IMG/VR virus record: IMGVR_UViG_3300043469_001079
Coordinates: 1-39,567 of that record
Direction: 5' to 3' (one strand)
Source of the DNA: a virus
Length of the DNA stretch: 39,567 nt
Part shown: piece after piece, positions 9,322 through 19,782 of the stretch
How the letters are laid out: each line of letters starts with the position of its first letter
Numbering within the stretch: position 1 is the stretch's first letter
Translations under genes and position numbers: made by a program
Notes under the pieces: model-generated
What the model was told of the DNA's origin: nothing
The model's database searches: none
What the model saw: the letters and a program-made list of their open reading frames with translations, nothing else

Positions 9322-9335
9322 AACTTTATTTTTAG

Positions 9336-9416
9336 TAGTCAGGGTAGGGCTCGAACCTACAACGATGCAACCACTTAAGGATGTGATGCCATTTTCACAT
9401 TACGCATTACCTGACT
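9336..9416 (-). tRNA. Non-canonical tRNA-like element with an 8-nt anticodon loop
   Basis: An 81-base element with a perfect 7-bp acceptor stem (AGTCAGG with CCTGACT), discriminator A, and a textbook T arm (GTAGG, loop TTCGAGC, CCTAC). The anticodon stem pairs as ATCAC with GTGGT and encloses ATCCTTAA, an 8-base loop with CCT after the expected U33 plus one extra T. The D arm (ATGC...GCAT) has a long loop without GG, and the variable region is about nine bases. It may be a degenerate Arg(CCU) tRNA, a quadruplet-reading tRNA, or a tRNA mimic. The T arm and acceptor are solid; the middle is uncertain. Confidence 0.5.
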
Positions 9417-9595
9417 ATGTTGCAACTATTATCCTTTAAGGAGTCAGTAGGTCAGTTGCCAACCTATCCTAGCCATACGCTCTAGGCTCTACAGTATGCA
9501 TCGTTGAGAGGCCAAGAGGAACTACGATCCTGTGTACTTAAGGAACAATACTTTGTTAAATTATAACTTTACTTTTATTGTAATATGTAAAGCTA
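9417..9595 (-). other. Non-coding interval with tRNA-derived fragments and inverted repeats
   Basis: No ORF is supported here. The minus strand repeats pieces of the neighbouring tRNA-like element: CCTTAAGT occurs in both, and AACGATGCA (near 9498-9506) is the exact complement of TGCATCGTT inside the element (9361-9369). CTGACT near 9441 could pair with its AGTCAGG. A CCTAG/CTAGG hairpin lies near 9465-9485. It reads as a decayed or rearranged tRNA cluster, or one larger structured RNA. Confidence 0.4.
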
Positions 9596-10993: not shown

Positions 10994-11212
10994 TTATTTA
11001 GTAGTAACAGCTTTCTGAGGTGGCTTTACTCTATAAGCATAACCAAATTGGTCTAGCTGAAAGTGTGCCCACTTGTCGTTGTGCTCTTCCTTATGATACT
11101 CAGCTGCTCTGCTTGAAAGTTTTACTTTCATGACAGTTTTACCTTTCTCTAAGTCTTCTACAATAATCTCGGCATATGGAATACCGTTTGATTCTCTAGT
11201 GTAACCAGTCAT
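10994..11212 (-). CDS. Hypothetical small protein
   Basis: A 72-residue protein (MTGYTRESNGIPYAEIIVED) with a beta-rich start and a basic, Pro-containing tail. No family is recognised. It is flanked by a candidate promoter upstream and tandem hairpins downstream, so it may be expressed alone. Confidence 0.65.
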   Translation of the reverse strand: MTGYTRESNGIPYAEIIVEDLEKGKTVMKVKLSSRAAEYHKEEHNDKWAHFQLDQFGYAYRVKPPQKAVTTK

Positions 11213-11231
11213 ATAAATGAATTTAAGAATC

Positions 11232-11265
11232 CAAATATAGTACTAATTAATAATAGGGAAACAAA
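11232..11265 (-). promoter_or_regulatory. Candidate Bacteroidota-type promoter
   Basis: On the minus strand TATATTTG (11232-11239) matches the TAnnTTTG -7 element, with TTTG at 11262-11265 placed 22 bases upstream as a possible -33 element. The start of the 72-residue gene lies 19 bases further on. The pairing of both boxes in an intergenic gap supports the call; spacing is slightly long. Confidence 0.5.
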
Positions 11266-11994: not shown

Positions 11995-13245
11995 TTAACG
12001 GTTGAATTGTTCGTAGATACCACCAGATTTCTCGCACATCTTTTTCATATTATGGTTTGTAGAACCAAGAATGAAACCATGTACAACAAAATCAGGGGTG
12101 TAGTGTGGTGAGACATAATCATCTCCATCATTAATCACACAAATCTGTGGTTTAATAGAGTCGATAGTTATATTACCATTTAGAGTACCACTTTTGATGT
12201 CAGTGATTGCCTGAGTGACAGCCTTCTCAATGTCAGTAGCACCTCTGTCAAATTGAAAGAGTGTATGAAAGTTTTCTAATACTTCATCAGCTTCCTCCTT
12301 GTTTCTAACAGGGATCCATGAATTTTCATCAAGTTGATCTTCAAAAGTACAAATGAATAGTTCAGCTTCACCTCTTACCACTTGATCAATACGATTAAGT
12401 AGAAGAGCTTTCACCCACTCCAATTTGAAATTATCATTCATACTACCAGAATCATCAATCAAGAAAGCAAGACATTGCTTCTTAATAGTGTACTTGATGT
12501 GTTCTTTGGGCATCACTTGTTTAGTAGCAAGCTTATACTGATAGTGAGGCATTGCTCTCTGTACAGGTGATACTTTCAAAGATTGAGAGAAGTCAGTAAG
12601 TGGTACCACCTTAACATCAGTGGATAGAGGATTAACTTTCCATGTAATCTCCTTGTGTGCTGCTATCTCATTCTCATAAATTTTGAGACGAGCCAGTTTG
12701 TTCAACACATTAAGTTGACGTATGTCAAGTTTAGCTACTGCTACACTTTTAAGTGTATCCTTATCATCAGTGCCAAATGTTTTAGCAGTGTAGGATCCAG
12801 AAGGCATGAGCTTCTCATATCTATCCAAATCAGCATTAATATCTTGTGCTAATTTAGAACCACAACTACTATCTCTTTCACTGAATAGATCAATTGCTTC
12901 GTTATCATCTTCACAACCATTTTCTTTATCTTGATTAGCAGTGCTTTTTTGATTGTAGATAGTAGCAATGATAGATAATGCTTTAGCCATAGGAGTACGA
13001 CCTTCATAGGAGTAGTCTAGTTTAGATAAGAAATCTCTTAGATTCTTCTCATAACCAGGCTTACCATAACCAGGACCATCAAATGCCTCTGCAACGTTAC
13101 CCCCATACATAATATGGGAGTAAGCATTGCAAATTTCCTGAGCCATTGTTGGAGAATAAGCACCTCTAAAACCCATCCCTCTAAAGAAGGAGTTGATTTG
13201 GATTCTAGATGGTGTTATATAGTAAGGATGTGGGGTGGTGATCAT
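11995..13245 (-). CDS. VWA-domain protein paired with MoxR-type ATPase
   Basis: A 416-residue protein. Its C-terminal von Willebrand factor A domain starts near residue 255; the metal-site motif is DDSGSMN (Asp264, Ser266, Ser268), with GATDIEKA near residue 338 and a later Asp in VINDGDDY. The N-terminal 250 residues contain a Gly/Tyr stretch and helical regions of unknown role. Paired MoxR and VWA proteins act together in chaperone or metal-chelatase systems (CobS/CobT-like), where the VWA part binds the ATPase or the target. The ATG overlaps the ATPase stop (ATGA), so the two are made in step. The domain call is firm; the target is unknown. Confidence 0.85.
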   Translation of the reverse strand: MITTPHPYYITPSRIQINSFFRGMGFRGAYSPTMAQEICNAYSHIMYGGNVAEAFDGPGYGKPGYEKNLRDFLSKLDYSYEGRTPMAKALSIIATIYNQKSTANQDKENGCEDDNEAIDLFSERDSSCGSKLAQDINADLDRYEKLMPSGSYTAKTFGTDDKDTLKSVAVAKLDIRQLNVLNKLARLKIYENEIAAHKEITWKVNPLSTDVKVVPLTDFSQSLKVSPVQRAMPHYQYKLATKQVMPKEHIKYTIKKQCLAFLIDDSGSMNDNFKLEWVKALLLNRIDQVVRGEAELFICTFEDQLDENSWIPVRNKEEADEVLENFHTLFQFDRGATDIEKAVTQAITDIKSGTLNGNITIDSIKPQICVINDGDDYVSPHYTPDFVVHGFILGSTNHNMKKMCEKSGGIYEQFNR

Positions 13246-15032
13246 AACTGTTGATCCTCCTCTACATTCTCTAAAGCCTTGTCTTTGAAGAAGTTATGAT
13301 GTGTATCACAACTATCCATTAGACGTTGCTTCTCCTCGAAATAAGATTCTGTTACAGTAATCTTATCCAATGCCTTACGAATTCTAGCAAAAGATTTACT
13401 AGCCTTCAAGCATTCGGTGTGATCAGTGATGGTAGCTTCTGTTTTAGCATACAGTTCATTGATCTGTATACAATAACCATCCAACAAATCTTTACTAATT
13501 TGATCTTGCTTTGCAGCATCCTCAAGTGTAGCAAGTTCATCGTATGCAGAAGATGGTACTTCAGCAATGTATTTTAATCCAGCTGCACCAACAGTGGAAT
13601 AAATCTTTGCCATCTTTACAGCAGTACGTGGGCTAATAGTGATGCCTTCTGAGTAAAGAGTACCACAAAGTTTTGCAACTGTGTTGTAGTTCTTCACTTC
13701 AGTGGATGAACCAAATAGTAAGTTAAACATACTCATGTAGTTACCTTCATGATATGCTTGCCACTTTACTTCTAGTTCAAGAGGGAACCTTTCCATAAGA
13801 GCTTTGATTGACAAGTCATCTGCTATCTGTGTACGAGAGTGATTGGTATTAATAACAATCATCTTAGTTTTGATAGGGAAGATTTGACTACCATTACGTA
13901 AGCACTTGGAAGTAAGAATGTCCTTCAATGTTGTTAGTACATACACTGGTGCATCAAATGCCTCCTCGAACACAACATATTCATGATTCATGAATGAGTG
14001 TTCTACAAGGTATTCAATCTTACCAGTGGTGTTGAACAACTGCATATCCATACCACCTAACAACTGTTCAGTTGTGGTGCCAGGACCAAGAGCTTGGACA
14101 AATGGCTCAATACCAAGAGAGTTAAAGAATTCAATTGACATCTCTGATTTGCCATGACCACCAGGACCAAACATAACACAGTGTTCTCCACACTGCATTG
14201 CAGTATAGAGCATCTCTGCTACATCTTCTGAGTAGGCAAACCTTGATGAGATTTGACTCTTGACTTCTTGGAATTTGGATTCCGTGATTTGAAAAGTGTT
14301 TTTCATATTGACTTTTTTAAAGTGTTCTTCTCTAATGATATCCAACTTATGAATGTTCTTGATACCTTCATCTGTTAATACAGGTGAGAAATCAATAGTA
14401 TGAAATGCAGAGATTGGTACAGATAAATCTACACCTGCTTTCTCACAGTTCTTGATAAGTGTATCTTTAATTTCATCAGTGAAACTAGCTGATTTCTCTA
14501 TCAATGTAGATGATGGTAATGATTGATAACCAATTGTTTTGAACATAAAATTAAAGATACTTTGATCACCCATTTCATTCATTGGACCTTCAATCTGTTC
14601 CCAATGATCAGCTCTTATTCCTTCAGTTTGTGAGAAATCTAAGAATTCATCACTACCACGATTTCTTATGAAGTCATCTTGAACAAGATTAGCAATCACT
14701 CTTGGAAATTCATTCATGAATTCAGTACCAGTGATACGGTCTTCTTGAGGTACAGGTACAGCAAGAGTTTGAAGAATTTGATCTTGAATGTACTCTGAAT
14801 CAGTGGATCTTGAAATGTCGTTCCAAAATTCATGTTTTTCAGGGGTGTGAGCCCATGTAAATCCAGCAGAGATAAATTGTTGCCAATCAGATTCATTATC
14901 TATCAAATGATCAAAATCATTATCTGCTGATTTGATTCTTTCCAAGATAATATCTTGAGCATTTTTTGATAACTCTCCAAATATTCGTTGAGTTTCTGTT
15001 AGGCTTGTTGTTGTTGTTTTCTTTTTAGCCAT
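13242..15032 (-). CDS. MoxR/CobS-like AAA+ ATPase
   Basis: A 596-residue ATPase. Walker A is GPGGHGKS at residues 289-296; the Walker B strand is EYVVFEEAFD near 351-360, with Glu where the first Asp usually stands; a sensor 1-like strand MIVINTNHS lies near 395. The segment LLGGMDM is the MoxR-type hairpin region. The first 285 residues have no recognised domain and make it about twice a minimal MoxR protein. MoxR ATPases work as hexamers with VWA partners to load cofactors or remodel proteins. The start follows AAACAAAACAAA, and a small basic ORF and terminator precede it. Confidence 0.85.
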   Translation of the reverse strand: MAKKKTTTTSLTETQRIFGELSKNAQDIILERIKSADNDFDHLIDNESDWQQFISAGFTWAHTPEKHEFWNDISRSTDSEYIQDQILQTLAVPVPQEDRITGTEFMNEFPRVIANLVQDDFIRNRGSDEFLDFSQTEGIRADHWEQIEGPMNEMGDQSIFNFMFKTIGYQSLPSSTLIEKSASFTDEIKDTLIKNCEKAGVDLSVPISAFHTIDFSPVLTDEGIKNIHKLDIIREEHFKKVNMKNTFQITESKFQEVKSQISSRFAYSEDVAEMLYTAMQCGEHCVMFGPGGHGKSEMSIEFFNSLGIEPFVQALGPGTTTEQLLGGMDMQLFNTTGKIEYLVEHSFMNHEYVVFEEAFDAPVYVLTTLKDILTSKCLRNGSQIFPIKTKMIVINTNHSRTQIADDLSIKALMERFPLELEVKWQAYHEGNYMSMFNLLFGSSTEVKNYNTVAKLCGTLYSEGITISPRTAVKMAKIYSTVGAAGLKYIAEVPSSAYDELATLEDAAKQDQISKDLLDGYCIQINELYAKTEATITDHTECLKASKSFARIRKALDKITVTESYFEEKQRLMDSCDTHHNFFKDKALENVEEDQQL

Positions 15033-15845: not shown

Positions 15846-16022
15846 TTACCAATTTGAATTTGAATGATTGTGTTGCCTTGCTCTTTGATGATGTCTATGC
15901 TTGGCTACTTTCTGATTGTGTTTTGAATCTTTCACACAACCTTTGGTTCTTGAATAACAAGATGACAGAAAAATGGTGATCAGAGTATATCCAATCACCA
16001 TCAAGATTAATCTTACTTTCAT
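15846..16022 (-). CDS. His-rich small lipoprotein (paralogue A)
   Basis: A 58-residue protein with a signal peptide (MKVRLILMVIGYTLITIFL) and lipobox ending in SSC at residue 22, so it is probably lipidated and exported. The mature part is short and basic with eight His. It shares GCVK, HN, VA and a final NW with the 51-residue lipoprotein at 18785, so the two are paralogues. The start overlaps the upstream microprotein stop (ATGA). Exported phage lipoproteins often act in superinfection exclusion; that role here is only an inference. Confidence 0.7.
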   Translation of the reverse strand: MKVRLILMVIGYTLITIFLSSCYSRTKGCVKDSKHNQKVAKHRHHQRARQHNHSNSNW

Positions 16023-16102: not shown

Positions 16103-16438
16103 AATTGTTTTGTTTAGTTTTGTTTTGTGTTTTACACCTAAAACTTTCTGACTTTATGTCCTTAATACCTTGCTACCAAAATACAACTATGTTGCCTAGC
16201 ATACAACCTCAAGCCCAATATTGGCATAGTCAGGTTTACATAGTACTTAATGTGTAGACTTATTAGTAAGATAAGTGAAAGAAACTGGTGCCCTCAACAT
16301 CTTGGGAAGTTATTGAGTTTTTTATTTGATTTGTTTGAAAATGCTATGTTATTTTTCAATCAAAAGGATTGTAGAAGGGATGGTGAATTAGAGTGAAAAG
16401 GGGGCAATTGTGATATACCCCCCTGTTCACACGTTCAA
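16103..16438 (-). other. 336-base non-coding interval with structured leader
   Basis: No ORF is supported. In minus-strand order it holds a terminator, a weak copy of the promoter-like motif (16368-16383), then inverted repeats: CCCAA at 16302-16306 with TTGGG at 16214-16218, a 6-bp hairpin ACTTAT/ATAAGT with a 7-base loop (16258-16276), and ACTATG/CATAGT near 16190-16230. The microprotein start follows an A-rich stretch. It may be a long structured leader or a small RNA. Confidence 0.4.
16396..16423 (-). terminator. Rho-independent terminator after the 117-residue gene
   Basis: GGGGG and CCCCC pair around a loop of about 13 bases; the minus strand continues CTTTTCAC. It lies 16 bases past the stop codon. 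Confidence 0.7.
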
Positions 16439-16792
16439 TTATGGCAATTGAGAGTCAGAAGTAGTAGGTTCTGACTGCTTAACTACCTGTTGCACTGGTT
16501 GTGAGCCTGCTAATTTAAATAAATTAGCCTGCAACATCTCCATTGCACTCACCTTCCCCATGTTTGAGTACGAGAAAGTGGCACCATACTCATTCGTACC
16601 TGTAGGTGTGACACCCAGCATGTAGTTATTTCCTGGTTCAATACCAAGATTTCGAGCAACTGTACCATCTAGTACTCTGGATCTTTCTGGCAGTACACCA
16701 TTGATACCATTGAGATAAAGTGGCATCTCACCATTCTTGTTAGGAGATGCAGTGGTTGGGTTAAAGAAACCCACGTTTACTAAGTAAACCAT
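16439..16792 (-). CDS. Hypothetical protein, DSQLP family, copy 1
   Basis: A 117-residue protein that pairs with the product at 17291. Both begin with a short beta segment (MVYLVNVGFF), share PER-RV--GT-A near the middle, then Y--------G-NEYG and end in SDSQLP. The shared tail after a flexible, Gln-rich linker suggests a docking peptide, as in single-stranded DNA-binding proteins, though no OB-fold can be proved. It has its own upstream motif and downstream terminator. Function unknown. Confidence 0.7.
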   Translation of the reverse strand: MVYLVNVGFFNPTTASPNKNGEMPLYLNGINGVLPERSRVLDGTVARNLGIEPGNNYMLGVTPTGTNEYGATFSYSNMGKVSAMEMLQANLFKLAGSQPVQQVVKQSEPTTSDSQLP

Positions 16793-16840
16793 AGTCTTGT
16801 TACATTTAGATTGTTAGACAAAAAAGATACTGTGGATTAT

Positions 16841-16850
16841 TAATGGTAGA
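16841..16850 (-). promoter_or_regulatory. Promoter-like motif copy upstream of DSQLP copy 1
   Basis: Core TAATGGTAGA on the plus strand (transcript sense TCTACCATTA), 48 bases upstream of the start at 16792. The CCATC part seen in other copies is replaced here by a C-rich tract. Confidence 0.5.
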
Positions 16851-17095
16851 GGAGGGGGGGCTGGTGCGTGGGGGGATGGGGGAGGTAACAATAGTATGTT
16901 GCAAAAGCTTACCATCAGGGAGCTTAGTGAGTAGGTTGCTTGGTCAGTTTTGAGGGGGAAAGTTAGCTGTTTATTAGATGTACTTCTCTCGTGTATTATA
17001 TATAACACGCGGGGTCGCGTTAACTCATTCACTTGCAATAGGTTACAAACGCTCGAGAGGGAAAAATTGACCACTTTTTGGTGAAAAGTGCTGAT

Positions 17096-17118
17096 TTTTT
17101 CCCAAAATTTGGGAAAAA
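17096..17118. repeat. Palindrome TTTCCC-N7-GGGAAA, site 1
   Basis: TTTCCCAAAATTTGGGAAA with extra T and A on each side. It begins the first of two tandem 55-62 base repeats (17096-17160 and 17161-17215) that also share ACCTTGAAT and GTGACATTT. The fixed arm spacing points to a dimeric DNA-binding protein. Confidence 0.7.
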
Positions 17119-17160
17119 TGGATTTTGAAATACCTTGAATTTGGGTGACATTTTACCTAC

Positions 17161-17182
17161 TTTTCCCACATTTTGGGAAAAA
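17161..17182. repeat. Palindrome TTTCCC-N7-GGGAAA, site 2
   Basis: TTTCCCACATTTTGGGAAA, the start of the second tandem repeat. The spacing of the arms equals that of site 1. Confidence 0.7.
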
Positions 17183-17230
17183 GATTTTACCTTGAATCAG
17201 AGTGACATTTCCCCACCTGCCTACCCTCAT

Positions 17231-17248
17231 TAGTGGTAGACAAGATGG
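17231..17248 (-). promoter_or_regulatory. Promoter-like motif copy with no gene directly behind it
   Basis: Core TAGTGGTAGA plus GATGG (transcript sense CCATC...TCTACCACTA). Transcription from here would run leftward through the two tandem palindromic repeats. The only frames behind it are a 25-codon and a 40-codon ORF that lie inside the repeats. Confidence 0.5.
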
Positions 17249-17252
17249 ATCT

Positions 17253-17270
17253 CACACCCTAATGGGTGTG
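17253..17270 (-). terminator. Terminator-like hairpin after DSQLP copy 2
   Basis: A 7-bp stem CACACCC/GGGTGTG with loop TAAT, about 20 bases after the stop at 17291 on the minus strand. There is no long T tract. Confidence 0.5.
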
Positions 17271-17290
17271 CCCCGAAAGGCAGCCCCCAA

Positions 17291-17632
17291 TTAAGGGAGC
17301 TGACTATCAGAGTCTGTGGTACTCACAGCTTTAGGTGCAGCAGGTGCAGCAACATTAGTGCGAGCAAATGAGATGATGTCTGCGACAGACAACTCATTCA
17401 GCACAAGGTACGTGTAGTTGGTACCATATTCATTGCTACCCGACTCATCAATCTTCATCAGATAGGAGTGGTGCAATTGCAAACCTGCACGCTCTGCGAG
17501 AGTACCTGACATAACACGAGCTCTTTCAGGAATAGGAGCACCGTGGATAGAGGTTAAATACACAGAGGAGAGACCATTTTTGTCGAGCTTGGTACCCTGA
17601 CCAAACAAAGACACGTTTACGAAGTATAACAT
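17291..17632 (-). CDS. Hypothetical protein, DSQLP family, copy 2
   Basis: A 113-residue paralogue of the product at 16439. It begins MLYFVNVSLFGQG, has PERARVMSGTLAERAG near residues 35-50, then GSNEYGTNYTYL, an Ala/Pro-rich linker and the tail TDSDSQLP. The two copies differ most in the linker. A motif copy lies 12 bases before the ATG and a strong hairpin lies further upstream, so it is probably transcribed alone. Two divergent copies kept side by side suggest a dose or partner effect. Confidence 0.7.
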   Translation of the reverse strand: MLYFVNVSLFGQGTKLDKNGLSSVYLTSIHGAPIPERARVMSGTLAERAGLQLHHSYLMKIDESGSNEYGTNYTYLVLNELSVADIISFARTNVAAPAAPKAVSTTDSDSQLP

Positions 17633-17644
17633 AGCAGTGATTTT

Positions 17645-17664
17645 TAATGGTAGAAAAAGGATGG
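17645..17664 (-). promoter_or_regulatory. Promoter-like motif copy upstream of DSQLP copy 2
   Basis: Core TAATGGTAGA at 17645-17654 with GATGG ending at 17664. In transcript sense it reads CCATCC, T-rich, CTACCATTAA, then ATG after 12 bases. Confidence 0.6.
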
Positions 17665-17714
17665 ATTATTTTTAGTAGGTTGCTACACGCAGTCAAGGGG
17701 TTCCCCAAAGGGAA

Positions 17715-17734
17715 GAGAGGGGTTTCCCCCTCTC
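17715..17734 (-). terminator. Terminator hairpin after the 103-residue lipoprotein gene
   Basis: An 8-bp stem GAGAGGGG/CCCCTCTC with a 4-base loop, lying seven bases beyond the stop; the minus strand continues TTCCCTTT. Confidence 0.65.
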
Positions 17735-17740
17735 AACTAA

Positions 17741-18052
17741 TTACTCGCAGATATCACGCACAACAGCAGTGGCATAGAATACAGAGTAAATCATTCTACC
17801 TGATGTATCTGTGTCATACCATGTTTCAGGCATATCTCCACGGAAGTTACCATAGTAGTGTGTGGTAGTACCATAACCACTCATGTACACATCCTTAACA
17901 ATGATGGTATCACCAACTTTGTTCATGGATAAGTCAGCATCAATCTGCTGAATCTGACCTTCAAGTCTTTCTACTTTCAAGGTCTTCTCTCCTGTGCAGC
18001 TCGACAATCCAATTGCCAATGCTGCAAAAAATAAAAACGTTTTCATATGCAT
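17741..18052 (-). CDS. Lipoprotein of about 100 residues
   Basis: A 103-residue exported lipoprotein. The signal peptide is MKTFLFFAALAIG and the lipobox LSSC places the lipidated Cys near residue 19; the real start may be the Met at residue 3 (18046). The mature part has a helical stretch (LKVERLEGQIQQIDADL) and then a Tyr-rich beta region (SGYGTTTHYYGNFRG). No domain is recognised. A motif copy precedes it and a hairpin follows. Envelope-located early phage lipoproteins can block other phages; here this is inference. Confidence 0.75.
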   Translation of the reverse strand: MHMKTFLFFAALAIGLSSCTGEKTLKVERLEGQIQQIDADLSMNKVGDTIIVKDVYMSGYGTTTHYYGNFRGDMPETWYDTDTSGRMIYSVFYATAVVRDICE

Positions 18053-18059
18053 ACTTTAT

Positions 18060-18078
18060 TAATGGTAGAAAAAGATGG
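18060..18078 (-). promoter_or_regulatory. Promoter-like motif copy upstream of the lipoprotein gene
   Basis: Core TAATGGTAGA at 18060-18069 and GATGG ending at 18078. The core lies only 7 bases before the ATG at 18052, or 13 before the Met at 18046. Confidence 0.6.
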
Positions 18079-18083
18079 AATAC

Positions 18084-18107
18084 AAAGGGAGATGTTACTC
18101 TCCCTTT
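18084..18107 (-). terminator. Terminator hairpin after the 80-residue gene
   Basis: An 8-bp stem AAAGGGAG/CTCCCTTT with an 8-base loop lies right after the stop at 18111, directly in front of the next motif copy. Confidence 0.65.
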
Positions 18108-18110
18108 TAA

Positions 18111-18353
18111 TTATCCTACAACATCTCCAATTATCCATTTATTGATTGCATTAATATAATGTCTTTCAAACCAATGGTTGGCATAACTATCAGATTCCAT
18201 ACACCTGCAAGTTATCTTAGAGTATTGTCCATAGAAAGCATACTTCTTATCATTAACATAGAAGTTGCCTGCGTGTAACCAATCATTGTTGAGTCCACGC
18301 ATAGGAAAGCATTCATTCAAAGCTTTCTCTAATTCGAGTTTTATCTGTTCCAT
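18111..18353 (-). CDS. Hypothetical protein
   Basis: An 80-residue protein starting MEQIKLELEKALNECFPM. The open frame extends 27 codons further upstream, but this ATG is right: the extension would code the motif and the preceding hairpin, and the motif core lies 12 bases before this ATG. The protein has a helical start and a Tyr/His/Trp-rich end (YANHWFERHYINAINKWI). No family is recognised. Confidence 0.65.
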   Translation of the reverse strand: MEQIKLELEKALNECFPMRGLNNDWLHAGNFYVNDKKYAFYGQYSKITCRCMESDSYANHWFERHYINAINKWIIGDVVG

Positions 18354-18365
18354 AGCAATGATTCT

Positions 18366-18383
18366 TGATGGTAGAAGAGATGG
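18366..18383 (-). promoter_or_regulatory. Promoter-like motif copy that fixes the start of the 80-residue gene
   Basis: Core TGATGGTAGA at 18366-18375 with GATGG ending at 18383. The T tract of the preceding terminator (TTTTACC) joins directly to this motif. Confidence 0.6.
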
Positions 18384-18387
18384 TAAA

Positions 18388-18408
18388 AGAGGGAGATATA
18401 CTCCCTCT
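18388..18408 (-). terminator. Terminator hairpin after the 98-residue gene
   Basis: An 8-bp stem AGAGGGAG/CTCCCTCT with loop ATATA; the minus strand continues TTTACC. It abuts the next motif copy. Confidence 0.75.
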
Positions 18409-18411
18409 CTG

Positions 18412-18708
18412 TTAATAAGGGAGGTCTCCCTCAACTACTGGAATGACCATGTTGTCCACCTCTACAGTGGTACCAACATAGCACTTCTCTTCCAATAGTT
18501 GAGAGATACCCCTCAAGTCACCTCGCTCAGAAAGCTTCCAACTTTCATTAGAATACTGAGCATAGAATAAGGATTGATCCCTATACAAAAGATAGGCATC
18601 TACCCAATACCCATCAACTGCAACCTTGATCATTTTCAAGATTTCAAATTCAACATGGGTGTTCTCCCCAAATTCTGTTGGGAGAGAAATAGTTACTCTT
18701 TGATTCAT
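18412..18708 (-). CDS. Hypothetical protein
   Basis: A 98-residue protein (MNQRVTISLPTEFGENTHVE) that looks beta-rich, with many acidic residues and Tyr/Trp. Its middle (DAYLLYRDQSLFYAQYSNE) resembles the YAFYGQYSKIT stretch of the next protein, so the two could be distant relatives. No family is recognised. A motif copy lies 25 bases upstream. Confidence 0.65.
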   Translation of the reverse strand: MNQRVTISLPTEFGENTHVEFEILKMIKVAVDGYWVDAYLLYRDQSLFYAQYSNESWKLSERGDLRGISQLLEEKCYVGTTVEVDNMVIPVVEGDLPY

Positions 18709-18733
18709 AATAAATAGATTTAGTATACTTATT

Positions 18734-18751
18734 TAATGGTAGAAAAGATGG
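18734..18751 (-). promoter_or_regulatory. Promoter-like motif copy upstream of the 98-residue gene
   Basis: Core TAATGGTAGA at 18734-18743 with GATGG ending at 18751; the start codon follows after 25 bases on the minus strand. Confidence 0.6.
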
Positions 18752-18756
18752 TTTAA

Positions 18757-18773
18757 AGAGAGCAAAGCTCTCT
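18757..18773 (-). terminator. Terminator hairpin after the 51-residue lipoprotein gene
   Basis: AGAGAGC and GCTCTCT pair around three bases, about 12 bases past the stop; the minus strand continues TTAAACC before the motif. Confidence 0.6.
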
Positions 18774-18784
18774 CTCTCCCCACA

Positions 18785-18940
18785 TTACCAGTTGTGTGAG
18801 GAGTTGCGGTGGTGAGCTCTGTAATGAGCTCTTTTGGCAGCCACTCTTTTATTGTGGTCTGCTTTGCCCACACAACCATGTGTGGACATGCAACTAGTTG
18901 TTCCCAGAACAACAGCTGCTAATAGTAATAATGTTTTCAT
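18785..18940 (-). CDS. His-rich small lipoprotein (paralogue B)
   Basis: A 51-residue protein with signal peptide MKTLLLLAAVVLG and lipidated Cys in TTSC at residue 17. The mature part (MSTHGCVGKADHNKRVAAKR, then a His/Arg-rich end and a final NW) matches the 58-residue lipoprotein at 15846: GCV-K--HN--VA---H-RA---N-S--NW. The second Cys and many His could bind a metal or heme, which is a guess. It has its own motif and terminator, unlike paralogue A, which sits in an operon. Confidence 0.7.
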   Translation of the reverse strand: MKTLLLLAAVVLGTTSCMSTHGCVGKADHNKRVAAKRAHYRAHHRNSSHNW

Positions 18941-18951
18941 ACAAGTTTATT

Positions 18952-18961
18952 TATTAGTAGA
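18952..18961 (-). promoter_or_regulatory. Promoter-like motif copy upstream of paralogue B
   Basis: Core TATTAGTAGA, 11 bases before the ATG. The CCATC part is shifted further away (CATCC at 18976-18980 in transcript sense). Confidence 0.5.
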
Positions 18962-18977
18962 TGTGTAAATAAAAAGG

Positions 18978-19022
18978 ATGCTTCTGTTACCAAGTATGCA
19001 TCAACCTCTGAGTCTTACTCAG
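18978..19022 (-). terminator. Two hairpins after the 56-residue membrane protein gene
   Basis: CTGAGT/ACTCAG with loop CTT (19008-19022), then GATGC/GCATC (18978-19002) followed on the minus strand by CTTTTTATTT. The second has the terminator form. Confidence 0.6.
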
Positions 19023-19036
19023 GTGGGCAGAGCTAG

Positions 19037-19207
19037 TTACTTAGAGGATTCTTCCTTAAGTAACAAGTAAAAGGAGGAGGCTCCCATTACAAAGAACAAT
19101 GCAAACAGCATGTTCCACGCTCTGGCATCTGTAAGTATTAGATACATACAGCATACCATGAATAGTGCAAGTAGCACTAGACATACCCTACGAATTACCG
19201 TAGTCAT
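19037..19207 (-). CDS. 56-residue two-helix membrane protein
   Basis: A complete frame from ATG at 19207 coding 56 residues with hydrophobic segments at about 8-25 and 32-50 separated by TDARAWN, and a charged end (KEESSK). This is a small inner-membrane protein in form. A motif copy lies 12 bases upstream and hairpins follow, so it obeys the same single-gene layout as its neighbours. Function unknown. Confidence 0.6.
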   Translation of the reverse strand: MTTVIRRVCLVLLALFMVCCMYLILTDARAWNMLFALFFVMGASSFYLLLKEESSK

Positions 19208-19219
19208 AGTATATTTATT

Positions 19220-19237
19220 TATTAGTAGACAAGATGG
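19220..19237 (-). promoter_or_regulatory. Promoter-like motif copy upstream of the 56-residue gene
   Basis: Core TATTAGTAGA at 19220-19229 with GATGG ending at 19237. Confidence 0.55.
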
Positions 19238-19252
19238 TTTATATAAAAGAAG

Positions 19253-19272
19253 AGTACCCCCGAAGGGGTACT
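19253..19272 (-). terminator. Terminator with UUCG tetraloop after the 98-residue gene
   Basis: AGTACCCC/GGGGTACT closes TTCG on the minus strand, a very stable C(UUCG)G loop; TCTTCTTTTAT follows. It lies five bases after the stop at 19277. Confidence 0.85.
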
Positions 19273-19276
19273 ACTC

Positions 19277-19573
19277 TTAGTTACATGAGAAGTAGGTTTC
19301 TTTGTCTACTCCATCAACACGGCACACACCTTCATATTCTGCTACTGTTTCAAAGTACCAGAACTCTTCAGTGATAGGATCATACCAGGCACCATCGCCT
19401 AGTACAAATCCATATCCATCACGATATGTTACATCTTCTGGAAGATTAAACAAATTATTAGGACAACGCATACATCTCTCATCAGGATGTAATTGTACCA
19501 TGTTCTCAAATGTTTCTTCATCTAGTTTATGAGTTAAGACCCAGTCTTTTCTCATAGCATCACGTAGTGTCAT
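19277..19573 (-). CDS. Hypothetical protein, first gene of the minus-strand arm
   Basis: A 98-residue acidic protein (MTLRDAMRKDWVLTHKLDEE) with a Cys pair CMRC at residues 34-37, further Cys near the end and Trp/Tyr-rich beta segments. A zinc site is possible. It is the first minus-strand gene after the divergent region, preceded by a motif copy and two palindromes, so it may be among the earliest expressed. No family is recognised. Confidence 0.65.
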   Translation of the reverse strand: MTLRDAMRKDWVLTHKLDEETFENMVQLHPDERCMRCPNNLFNLPEDVTYRDGYGFVLGDGAWYDPITEEFWYFETVAEYEGVCRVDGVDKETYFSCN

Positions 19574-19603
19574 AGTTTTTTTAGTTTATAGTGTATATTT
19601 AAT

Positions 19604-19613
19604 TATTGGTAGG
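19604..19613 (-). promoter_or_regulatory. Promoter-like motif copy at the divergent region
   Basis: Core TATTGGTAGG with GATACTGG behind it, 30 bases before the start at 19573. It is the weakest of the nine better copies. Confidence 0.45.
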
Positions 19614-19695
19614 GATACTGGCATGCCCATAGTAGTTGGGGGGAGTTGTAGAGGAGCAGGTCACTCCCCTCGTAAACATAGGGGGGTAAAAAATT

Positions 19696-19714
19696 TTTCC
19701 CATTTTTTGGGAAA
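19696..19714. repeat. Palindrome TTTCCC-N7-GGGAAA, site 3
   Basis: TTTCCCATTTTTTGGGAAA in the divergent intergenic region, same arms and spacing as the two sites at 17.1 kb. Confidence 0.7.
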
Positions 19715-19747
19715 TAAATCACATATAGTACTAAAAAATTTTTAAAA

Positions 19748-19766
19748 TTTCCCAATATTTGGGAAA
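19748..19766. repeat. Palindrome TTTCCC-N7-GGGAAA, site 4
   Basis: TTTCCCAATATTTGGGAAA, ending 16 bases before the ATG of the RepL-like gene. It could be an operator or a replication-protein site. Confidence 0.75.
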
Positions 19767-19771
19767 ATGTA

Positions 19772-19779
19772 TATATTTG
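19772..19779 (+). promoter_or_regulatory. TATATTTG box directly before the RepL-like start
   Basis: It matches the Bacteroidota -7 element TAnnTTTG and ends three bases before the ATG, so the mRNA could be almost leaderless. No clear TTG -33 element is seen at the usual distance. Confidence 0.45.
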
Positions 19780-19782
19780 TCT

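What the first reader, a model, noticed from the sequence alone, without database searches (positions are those of the whole stretch)
16368..19613. A conserved intergenic motif heads single-gene units in the minus-strand accessory block
Nine copies (cores at 16841, 17231, 17645, 18060, 18366, 18734, 18952, 19220 and 19604) plus a weak one at 16368 share, in transcript sense, CCATC, a short T-rich stretch and CTACCATTAA. Eight sit 7-48 bases before a start codon. I see no such copies in the rest of the minus arm. It does not match the host TAnnTTTG/TTG promoter, so a phage-specific promoter, perhaps for a virion RNA polymerase or a modified host enzyme, or a translation signal is possible.
Basis: partly seen in the sequence, partly recalled or inferred. 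Interest (0 to 1): 0.85.

Follow-up and report, generated by a model that had tools for sequence, protein, structure and literature searches.

The report
Repeated promoter-like motif in crAss-like phage
An uncultivated crAss-like phage carries a row of small single-gene units, each starting with the same short DNA signal and mostly set off by a transcription stop, which looks like the phage's own private 'on' switch; if so, it is a candidate for the still undescribed switches of this very abundant group of gut and environmental viruses.

Summary
A motif far beyond chance sits at nine minus-strand sites between 16.84 and 19.61 kb, plus a decayed tenth at 16.37 kb. Unbiased motif discovery on minus-arm gene starts recovers it; the plus arm gives nothing above shuffled controls.

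CCATC is in only six of the nine and marks copies that follow a hairpin terminator. The core CTACCATTAA is followed by a second conserved element, T-(A/G)-(C/T), at fixed positions 18-20. That element persists in units whose ATG lies a further 14-19 nt downstream, so this is not a ribosome site at fixed distance. The host TAnnTTTG box is absent.

One relative (L021, 99% identical terminase) carries homologous cassettes in a different order, each headed by an alignable variant, ATACC(C/A)T, with the same spacing.

Best reading: a phage-specific promoter making very short-leader mRNAs (predicted start at position 19, 2-4 nt before ATG in most units), arranged as shuffling promoter-gene-terminator cassettes, like T4 PeSLs and AR9/P23-45 phage-polymerase promoters. 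Which polymerase reads it is unknown; the virion RNA polymerase of Crassvirales is a natural candidate. Transcription was not tested.

The parts
19593..19621 (-). motif copy 1 (head of the block, before gene 19573): CCAGTATCC-CTACC-AATAATTAAA-TATAC; ATG 19 nt further
   Evidence: 5' flank GCCAGTATCCCTA shared with the L021 head although a different gene follows there
19277..19573 (-). single-gene unit, 98 aa, no known family
   Evidence: 59% identical homologue in L021
19253..19272 (-). terminator hairpin AGTACCCC-TTCG-GGGGTACT + T tail
   Evidence: kept after the homologous gene in L021
19209..19237 (-). motif copy 2: CCATCTTGT-CTACT-AATAAATAAA-TATAC, then T-ATG
19037..19207 (-). single-gene unit, 56 aa membrane-type protein
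   Evidence: 66% identical homologue in L021
18977..19002 (-). hairpin GATGC...GCATC + CTTTTT (weaker terminator)
   Evidence: same sequence after the L021 homologue
18941..18960 (-). motif copy 3: CTACT-AATAAATAAA-CTTG, then T-ATG; no CCATC
18785..18940 (-). single-gene unit, 51 aa lipoprotein-like
   Evidence: 84% to L021, 45% to window 15846-16022
18756..18775 (-). hairpin AGAGAGAGC-TTT-GCTCTCT
18723..18751 (-). motif copy 4: CCATCTTTT-CTACC-ATTAAATAAG-TATAC; ATG 14 nt further
18412..18708 (-). single-gene unit, 98 aa, no known family
18388..18408 (-). terminator hairpin AGAGGGAG...CTCCCTCT + TTTT
18355..18383 (-). motif copy 5: CCATCTCTT-CTACC-ATCAAGAATC-ATTGC, then T-ATG
18111..18353 (-). 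single-gene unit, 80 aa, no known family
18084..18107 (-). terminator hairpin AAAGGGAGA...TCTCCCTTT
18049..18078 (-). motif copy 6: CCATCTTTTT-CTACC-ATTAATAAAG-TATGC, then AT-ATG
17741..18052 (-). single-gene unit, 101-103 aa lipoprotein-like; likely start is the second ATG at 18046
   Evidence: weak phrog_29411
17715..17734 (-). terminator hairpin GAGAGGGG...CCCCTCTC
17634..17664 (-). motif copy 7: CCATCCTTTTT-CTACC-ATTAAAAATC-ACTGC, then T-ATG
17291..17632 (-). single-gene unit, 113 aa; paralogue of 16439-16792; predicted beta-rich fold with a conserved SDSQLP tail
   Evidence: SSB/OB matches not significant
17253..17301 (-). two hairpins, AGCTCCC...GGGGGCT and CACACCC...GGGTGTG
17220..17248 (-). 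motif copy 8, partly decayed: CCATCTTGT-CTACC-ACTAATGAGG-GTAGG; no ORF close behind
16830..16849 (-). motif copy 9 (second head): CTACC-ATTAATAATC-CACAG; ATG 37 nt further; C-rich flank, no terminator before it
16439..16792 (-). single-gene unit, 117 aa, paralogue of 17291-17632
16355..16383 (-). weak, decayed copy: CCATCCCTT-CTACA-ATCCTTTTGA-TTGAA behind a hairpin; no ORF close behind

Best explanation
Each copy is a promoter used only for this accessory, probably early-expressed block. The DNA element is CTACC-ATTAA-(N2)A(N4)-T-(A/G), with an upstream CCATC box in most copies that follow a terminator. A polymerase that does not use the host -7 box starts at the purine at position 19 of the element, giving mRNAs with 2-4 nt before AUG in five of eight units and 16-39 nt in the other three. 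In the internal units transcription of each gene ends at the hairpin after it and the next promoter follows within a few tens of bases, so the block is a string of promoter-gene-terminator cassettes that can be swapped or reordered by recombination at the shared element. Shown: the motif, its position, one-strand bias and absence from the plus arm, hairpins before all seven internal copies, the fixed second element, and the reordering with a motif variant in L021. Inferred: that it is a promoter, the start site, early timing and recombination.
For: De novo discovery finds the motif only at minus-arm starts; the next-best PWM hit (13.2 bits against 16.6-24.2 for the nine) is in coding sequence. 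Internal copies follow hairpins in the top 0-2.5% of minus-strand folding energies, while minus-arm terminators elsewhere (15203-15180, 11994-11971) have no motif, so it is not a terminator tail. Columns 18-20 are conserved (0 of 4000 rotations), including T-A-C in all three units whose ATG is 14-19 nt further (two of the three are orthologous). The two copies with no gene behind them have lost exactly the 3' half. L021 has four homologous cassette heads with ATACC(C/A)T and the same 19-20 nt span, in the order B-A-C instead of A-B-C. Host TAnnTTTG is absent from every copy. Phage polymerase promoters with this architecture are known: AR9 late AACA-(6N)-T-A/G with start at A/G and AR9 early AT-rich box-(6N)-G (PMC5312081); P23-45 AT-rich motif (PMC10770324).
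Against: No transcript data. Only one relative shares the block, and L024/L025/L028, 81-84% identical in terminase, lack the array. crAss001 and phi14:2 show no equivalent motif in the arms examined. The window has no RNA polymerase gene, and the relatives' recovered contigs stop inside a giant virion protein. Five of eight ATGs are locked 20-22 nt from the motif start, which a translation signal would also give. The 2-4 nt leaders would be unusual for this phylum (leaderless mRNAs 5.5% in F. psychrophilum). L021, with 99% identical terminase, uses a different variant, which a single polymerase would have to tolerate.
Confidence: 0.6

Rival explanations
1. A translation-initiation or mRNA-leader element: the block is read as one or a few long transcripts and the motif, in RNA, promotes initiation or mRNA stability, like the start-associated sequences of cluster K mycobacteriophages.
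For: Five of eight window copies and three of four L021 copies have the ATG 20-22 nt from the motif start. Bacteroidetes lack Shine-Dalgarno sites, so an alternative element is conceivable. SAS show that phages carry such repeats at starts.
Against: In four copies across window and L021 the ATG lies 34-57 nt away, with the 3' element kept in three of them. Strong terminators stand directly in front of the motif. Other minus-arm genes are presumably translated without it. It has no Shine-Dalgarno core, unlike SAS.
Confidence: 0.17
2. A promoter for host RNA polymerase carrying an alternative or phage-modified sigma, with TACCATTA as a degenerate -7 box, so no phage polymerase is involved.
For: TACCATTA keeps TAnn.TT of TAnnTTTG; flavobacteria have alternative motifs such as TAnnTTGY. 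One clear host-type promoter lies in the same arm at 11264.
Against: No copy has TTTG in place, no -33 TTG stands at the right distance in the stems upstream, and 4 of 6 box letters is what an AT-rich site gives easily.
Confidence: 0.15
3. A recombination or cassette-boundary site first of all: short shared sequence kept because it lets accessory genes be exchanged, with no transcription role.
For: The L021 and window cassettes are reordered with breakpoints at or next to the motif; two copies lie at places without a gene.
Against: The element is asymmetric, always in one orientation, and its 3' half decays where no gene follows, which a pure recombination site would not need. Flanks of the copies are not alike, so there is no sign of recent duplication.
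Confidence: 0.05
4. Part of the terminator (a 3'-end signal of a phage polymerase), not a promoter.
For: All seven internal copies and the decayed 16368 copy follow hairpins; P23-45 virion polymerase terminators carry a conserved motif.
Against: The two head copies (19612, 16849) have no minus-strand gene ending just before them; hairpin terminators elsewhere in the arm lack the motif.
Confidence: 0.03

Closest known systems
PeSLs (promoter early stem-loops) of T4-like phages (Arbiol 2010, Comeau 2014; read here only as cited in PMC4503421 and PMC3950731)
   Same: Composite terminator stem-loop plus promoter between small accessory genes in a shuffled region
   Different: Different promoter sequence, unrelated phage order, not shown to be transcribed, and the promoter is not the host consensus
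Early and late promoters of phage-encoded RNA polymerases in AR9 (PMC5312081) and P23-45 (PMC10770324)
   Same: Short conserved element followed by a fixed gap and T-A/G or G at the start; many copies upstream of one temporal class
   Different: Sequence differs; no polymerase gene in hand; predicted leaders here are 2-4 nt in most units, whereas AR9 leaders are 26-491 nt
Halovirus HF2 intergenic repeats and the HGTV-1 repeated motif (PMC8707807, PMC3950731)
   Same: Repeated intergenic element at gene heads; in HF2 shown by reporter to be promoters
   Different: Viruses of archaea; different AT-rich / TATA-like motifs
Start-associated sequences (SAS/ESAS) of cluster K mycobacteriophages (PMC3203893)
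   Same: Repeated element just before start codons of non-structural genes
   Different: SAS carry an AGGAG core pairing 16S rRNA and lie 3-7 bp from the start; this motif does neither

Membership tests
T4-type PeSL | Stem-loop terminator joined to a promoter in intergenic space between accessory genes | tested here: inconclusive
   Hairpin plus motif at 7 of 7 internal sites; promoter activity untested
T4-type PeSL | Promoter is a host-sigma-type early promoter | tested here: not met
   No TAnnTTTG in any copy
T4-type PeSL | Associated with gene shuffling between relatives | tested here: inconclusive
   One relative, L021, with swapped order of two cassettes; only one comparison available
Host (Bacteroidetes sigma-A) promoter | TAHHTTTG at -12 to -5 | tested here: not met
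Cluster K start-associated sequence | 13-bp GGGATAGGAGCCC with SD core, 3-7 bp before start | tested here: not met
Virion RNA polymerase promoter (AR9/phiKZ/P23-45 kind) | Transcript 5' end at a fixed distance from the motif, rifampicin-resistant | not testable with these tools
   No transcript data; T-R at positions 18-19 fits the layout
Crassvirales (the phage) | Terminase, portal, major capsid and family B DNA polymerase of crAss type | tested here: met
   (terminase about 32% to gut crAss-like phages)
Crassvirales (the phage) | Giant virion RNA polymerase gene | tested here: inconclusive
   Relatives' contigs end in a giant virion protein, phrog_37948; polymerase gene itself not recovered

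The most novel reading that the evidence does not exclude
The motif is the recognition sequence of the crAss-type virion RNA polymerase, which starts nearly leaderless mRNAs from a string of exchangeable one-gene cassettes, and the motif and polymerase co-diverge between close relatives (CTACC in the window, ATACC in L021).
Probability: 0.2. Interest if true: 0.85.

Novelty: new variant of a known kind. Interest (0 to 1): 0.55.

Why it matters
The virion RNA polymerase of crAss-like phages has a solved structure and is known to transcribe early genes (PMC10136315, PMC10770324), but the open-access papers read here name no promoter sequence for it. A defined motif with a predicted start base and a natural variant is a direct substrate for testing which enzyme reads it. 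It also suggests that the fast-changing blocks of short unknown genes in this phage order can be organised as promoter-gene-terminator cassettes.

Tried and rejected
IMG/VR pattern scan for CCATCYTN(1-3)TCTACCATTAA: 16 contigs with one hit each and no array, judged chance. Searches for relatives of the MoxR-like ATPase, the 98-aa gene and the OB-like paralogues found none; the RepL-like, PhoH and 56-aa gene searches added no contig with the block beyond L021. Two genome-contig scans with the terminase found none. BLAST against named phages: no DNA match to the block. Motif search in crAss001 and phi14:2: no consensus resembling it; crAss001 gp104 has a single CATACCATTAAAATG upstream, which chance can explain. 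An automatic scan of other fetched loci for start-associated motifs: the window ranks first among sets of more than six starts; L047 has a six-start hairpin-like repeat. A host-promoter reading and a terminator-tail reading were tested and set aside. Kozak-like A at -3: 1 of 5 short-leader units, 3 of 3 long-leader units, 12 of 25 other genes; suggestive only. AF2 for the 98-aa protein failed (pLDDT 45); Foldseek with the 117-aa model gave nothing significant.
Full report
Where it lies. The window is a 39,567-bp virus record of a crAss-like phage: terminase about 32% identical to gut crAss-like phages, crAss-type portal, major capsid protein and family B DNA polymerase, and two divergent gene arms with a change of GC skew between about 14 and 20 kb. 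The block (16.4-19.6 kb, minus strand) begins at the divergence point, next to a RepL/DnaD-like gene and PhoH on the plus strand.

The observation. All nine cores are real. Seven of nine outscore every other position of the window on both strands in leave-one-out scoring, and the two weaker ones are matched by three positions each. Unbiased motif discovery on upstream regions returns the same motif for the minus arm (LL 96.5 against 71-83 for shuffles) and for block genes alone (102.6 against 53-59), and nothing for the plus arm (79.7 against 70-79).

Anatomy. Aligning eight gene-bearing copies with four from L021 shows two conserved parts: positions 1-10, (C/A)TAC(C/T) followed by an AT-rich ATTAA-like stretch, an invariant A at 13, then T (11 of 12), purine (12 of 12) and C or T (11 of 12) at 18-20. 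A rotation test puts the best three-column window downstream of the core at 18-20 (0 of 4000 rotations reach it). That null does not fully remove ATG-linked signal, so the stronger point is that the three copies whose ATG is 14-19 nt further on still read T-A-C at 18-20; two of these three are orthologous. Position 19 is therefore my predicted start, giving leaders of 2-4 nt in five units and about 16, 21 and 39 nt in three. The two copies with no ORF behind them (17239, 16368) have lost this 3' half.

Terminators. All seven internal copies (17239-19228) have, in the 80 nt before them, a 45-nt window in the top 0-2.5% of minus-strand folding energies; the two head copies differ (a C-rich flank; a moderate hairpin before 19612, none before 16849). 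Minus-arm terminators outside the block (15203-15180, 11994-11971) are not followed by the motif.

Relatives. L021 (11.1 kb, terminase 99% identical) carries homologues of three block genes (59-84% identical) in the order B-A-C instead of A-B-C. Gene and following terminator travel together, while the head flank GCCAGTATCCCTA stays at the head in both phages. All four L021 heads use ATACC(C/A)T with the same spacing. L024, L025 and L028 (terminase 81-84% identical) keep related divergent-region sequence but no array. No further relative with the block was found in IMG/VR, GTDB genomes or named phages.

What it is not. It is not the host promoter: TAHHTTTG at -12 to -5 (PMC6847099) is in none of the copies. 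It is not a ribosome-binding site at fixed distance, because the ATG distance varies while the internal geometry does not. It is not merely a terminator tail.

What it works like. The layout, a short element, a gap of about seven and T followed by a purine, is like the AR9 late promoter AACA-(6N)-T-A/G with its start at the purine (PMC5312081). The terminator-promoter arrangement between shuffled small genes is like T4 PeSLs (cited in PMC4503421). I do not file it as a PeSL because the host-type promoter is missing, nor as a virion-polymerase promoter because that cannot be tested here. In crAss-like phages the virion polymerase transcribes early and middle genes in a rifampicin-resistant way (PMC10136315), which makes it a natural but unproven reader. 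crAss001 and phi14:2 show no equivalent motif in the arms examined.

Verdict. A genuine, lineage-specific, promoter-like element heading promoter-gene-terminator cassettes. Promoter function by a non-host-consensus polymerase about 0.6; virion-polymerase recognition about 0.2 overall.

Noticed in passing
17060-17200 and 19696-19780: TTTTCCCAA...TTGGGAAAA palindromes on both sides of the cassette block; L024, L025 and L028 carry them beside the RepL-like gene. The stretch 16850-17200 aligns with the single divergent region of L024/L028 (including CGTGT..ATAT..ATACAC), as if an origin or operator region had been split or duplicated by the block.
   Followed up: partly
16439-16792 and 17291-17632: Paralogous 117/113-aa proteins (36% identical) with a conserved SDSQLP end; the AF2 model is beta-rich and its best, non-significant, PDB matches are mostly SSB/OB folds.
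   Followed up: partly
15846-16022, 17741-18046, 18785-18940: Three small lipoprotein-like ORFs, two of them paralogous (45%); possibly envelope or superinfection-exclusion functions.
   Followed up: no
L021:1280-1400: L021 appears to have lost most of the RepL-like gene found in the window and in L024/L025/L028; only a remnant is left next to PhoH.
   Followed up: no
11205-11264, minus strand: Clear host-type promoter TTG-N-TATATTTG before the 11212 gene, inside the minus arm.
   Followed up: no
9330-9430, minus strand: tRNA-like tail GGTTCGAGCCCTACCCTGAC paired with an upstream GTCAGG that ARAGORN did not call; possibly a divergent tRNA.
   Followed up: no
11995-15032, minus strand: MoxR-like AAA ATPase next to a von Willebrand factor A protein, the pair known from MoxR-vWA systems, in a phage.
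   Followed up: no
L117:41851-42060 (crAss001 gp104 upstream): Single CATACCATTAAAATG before the first early gene of crAss001; resembles the core but chance can explain it.
   Followed up: partly
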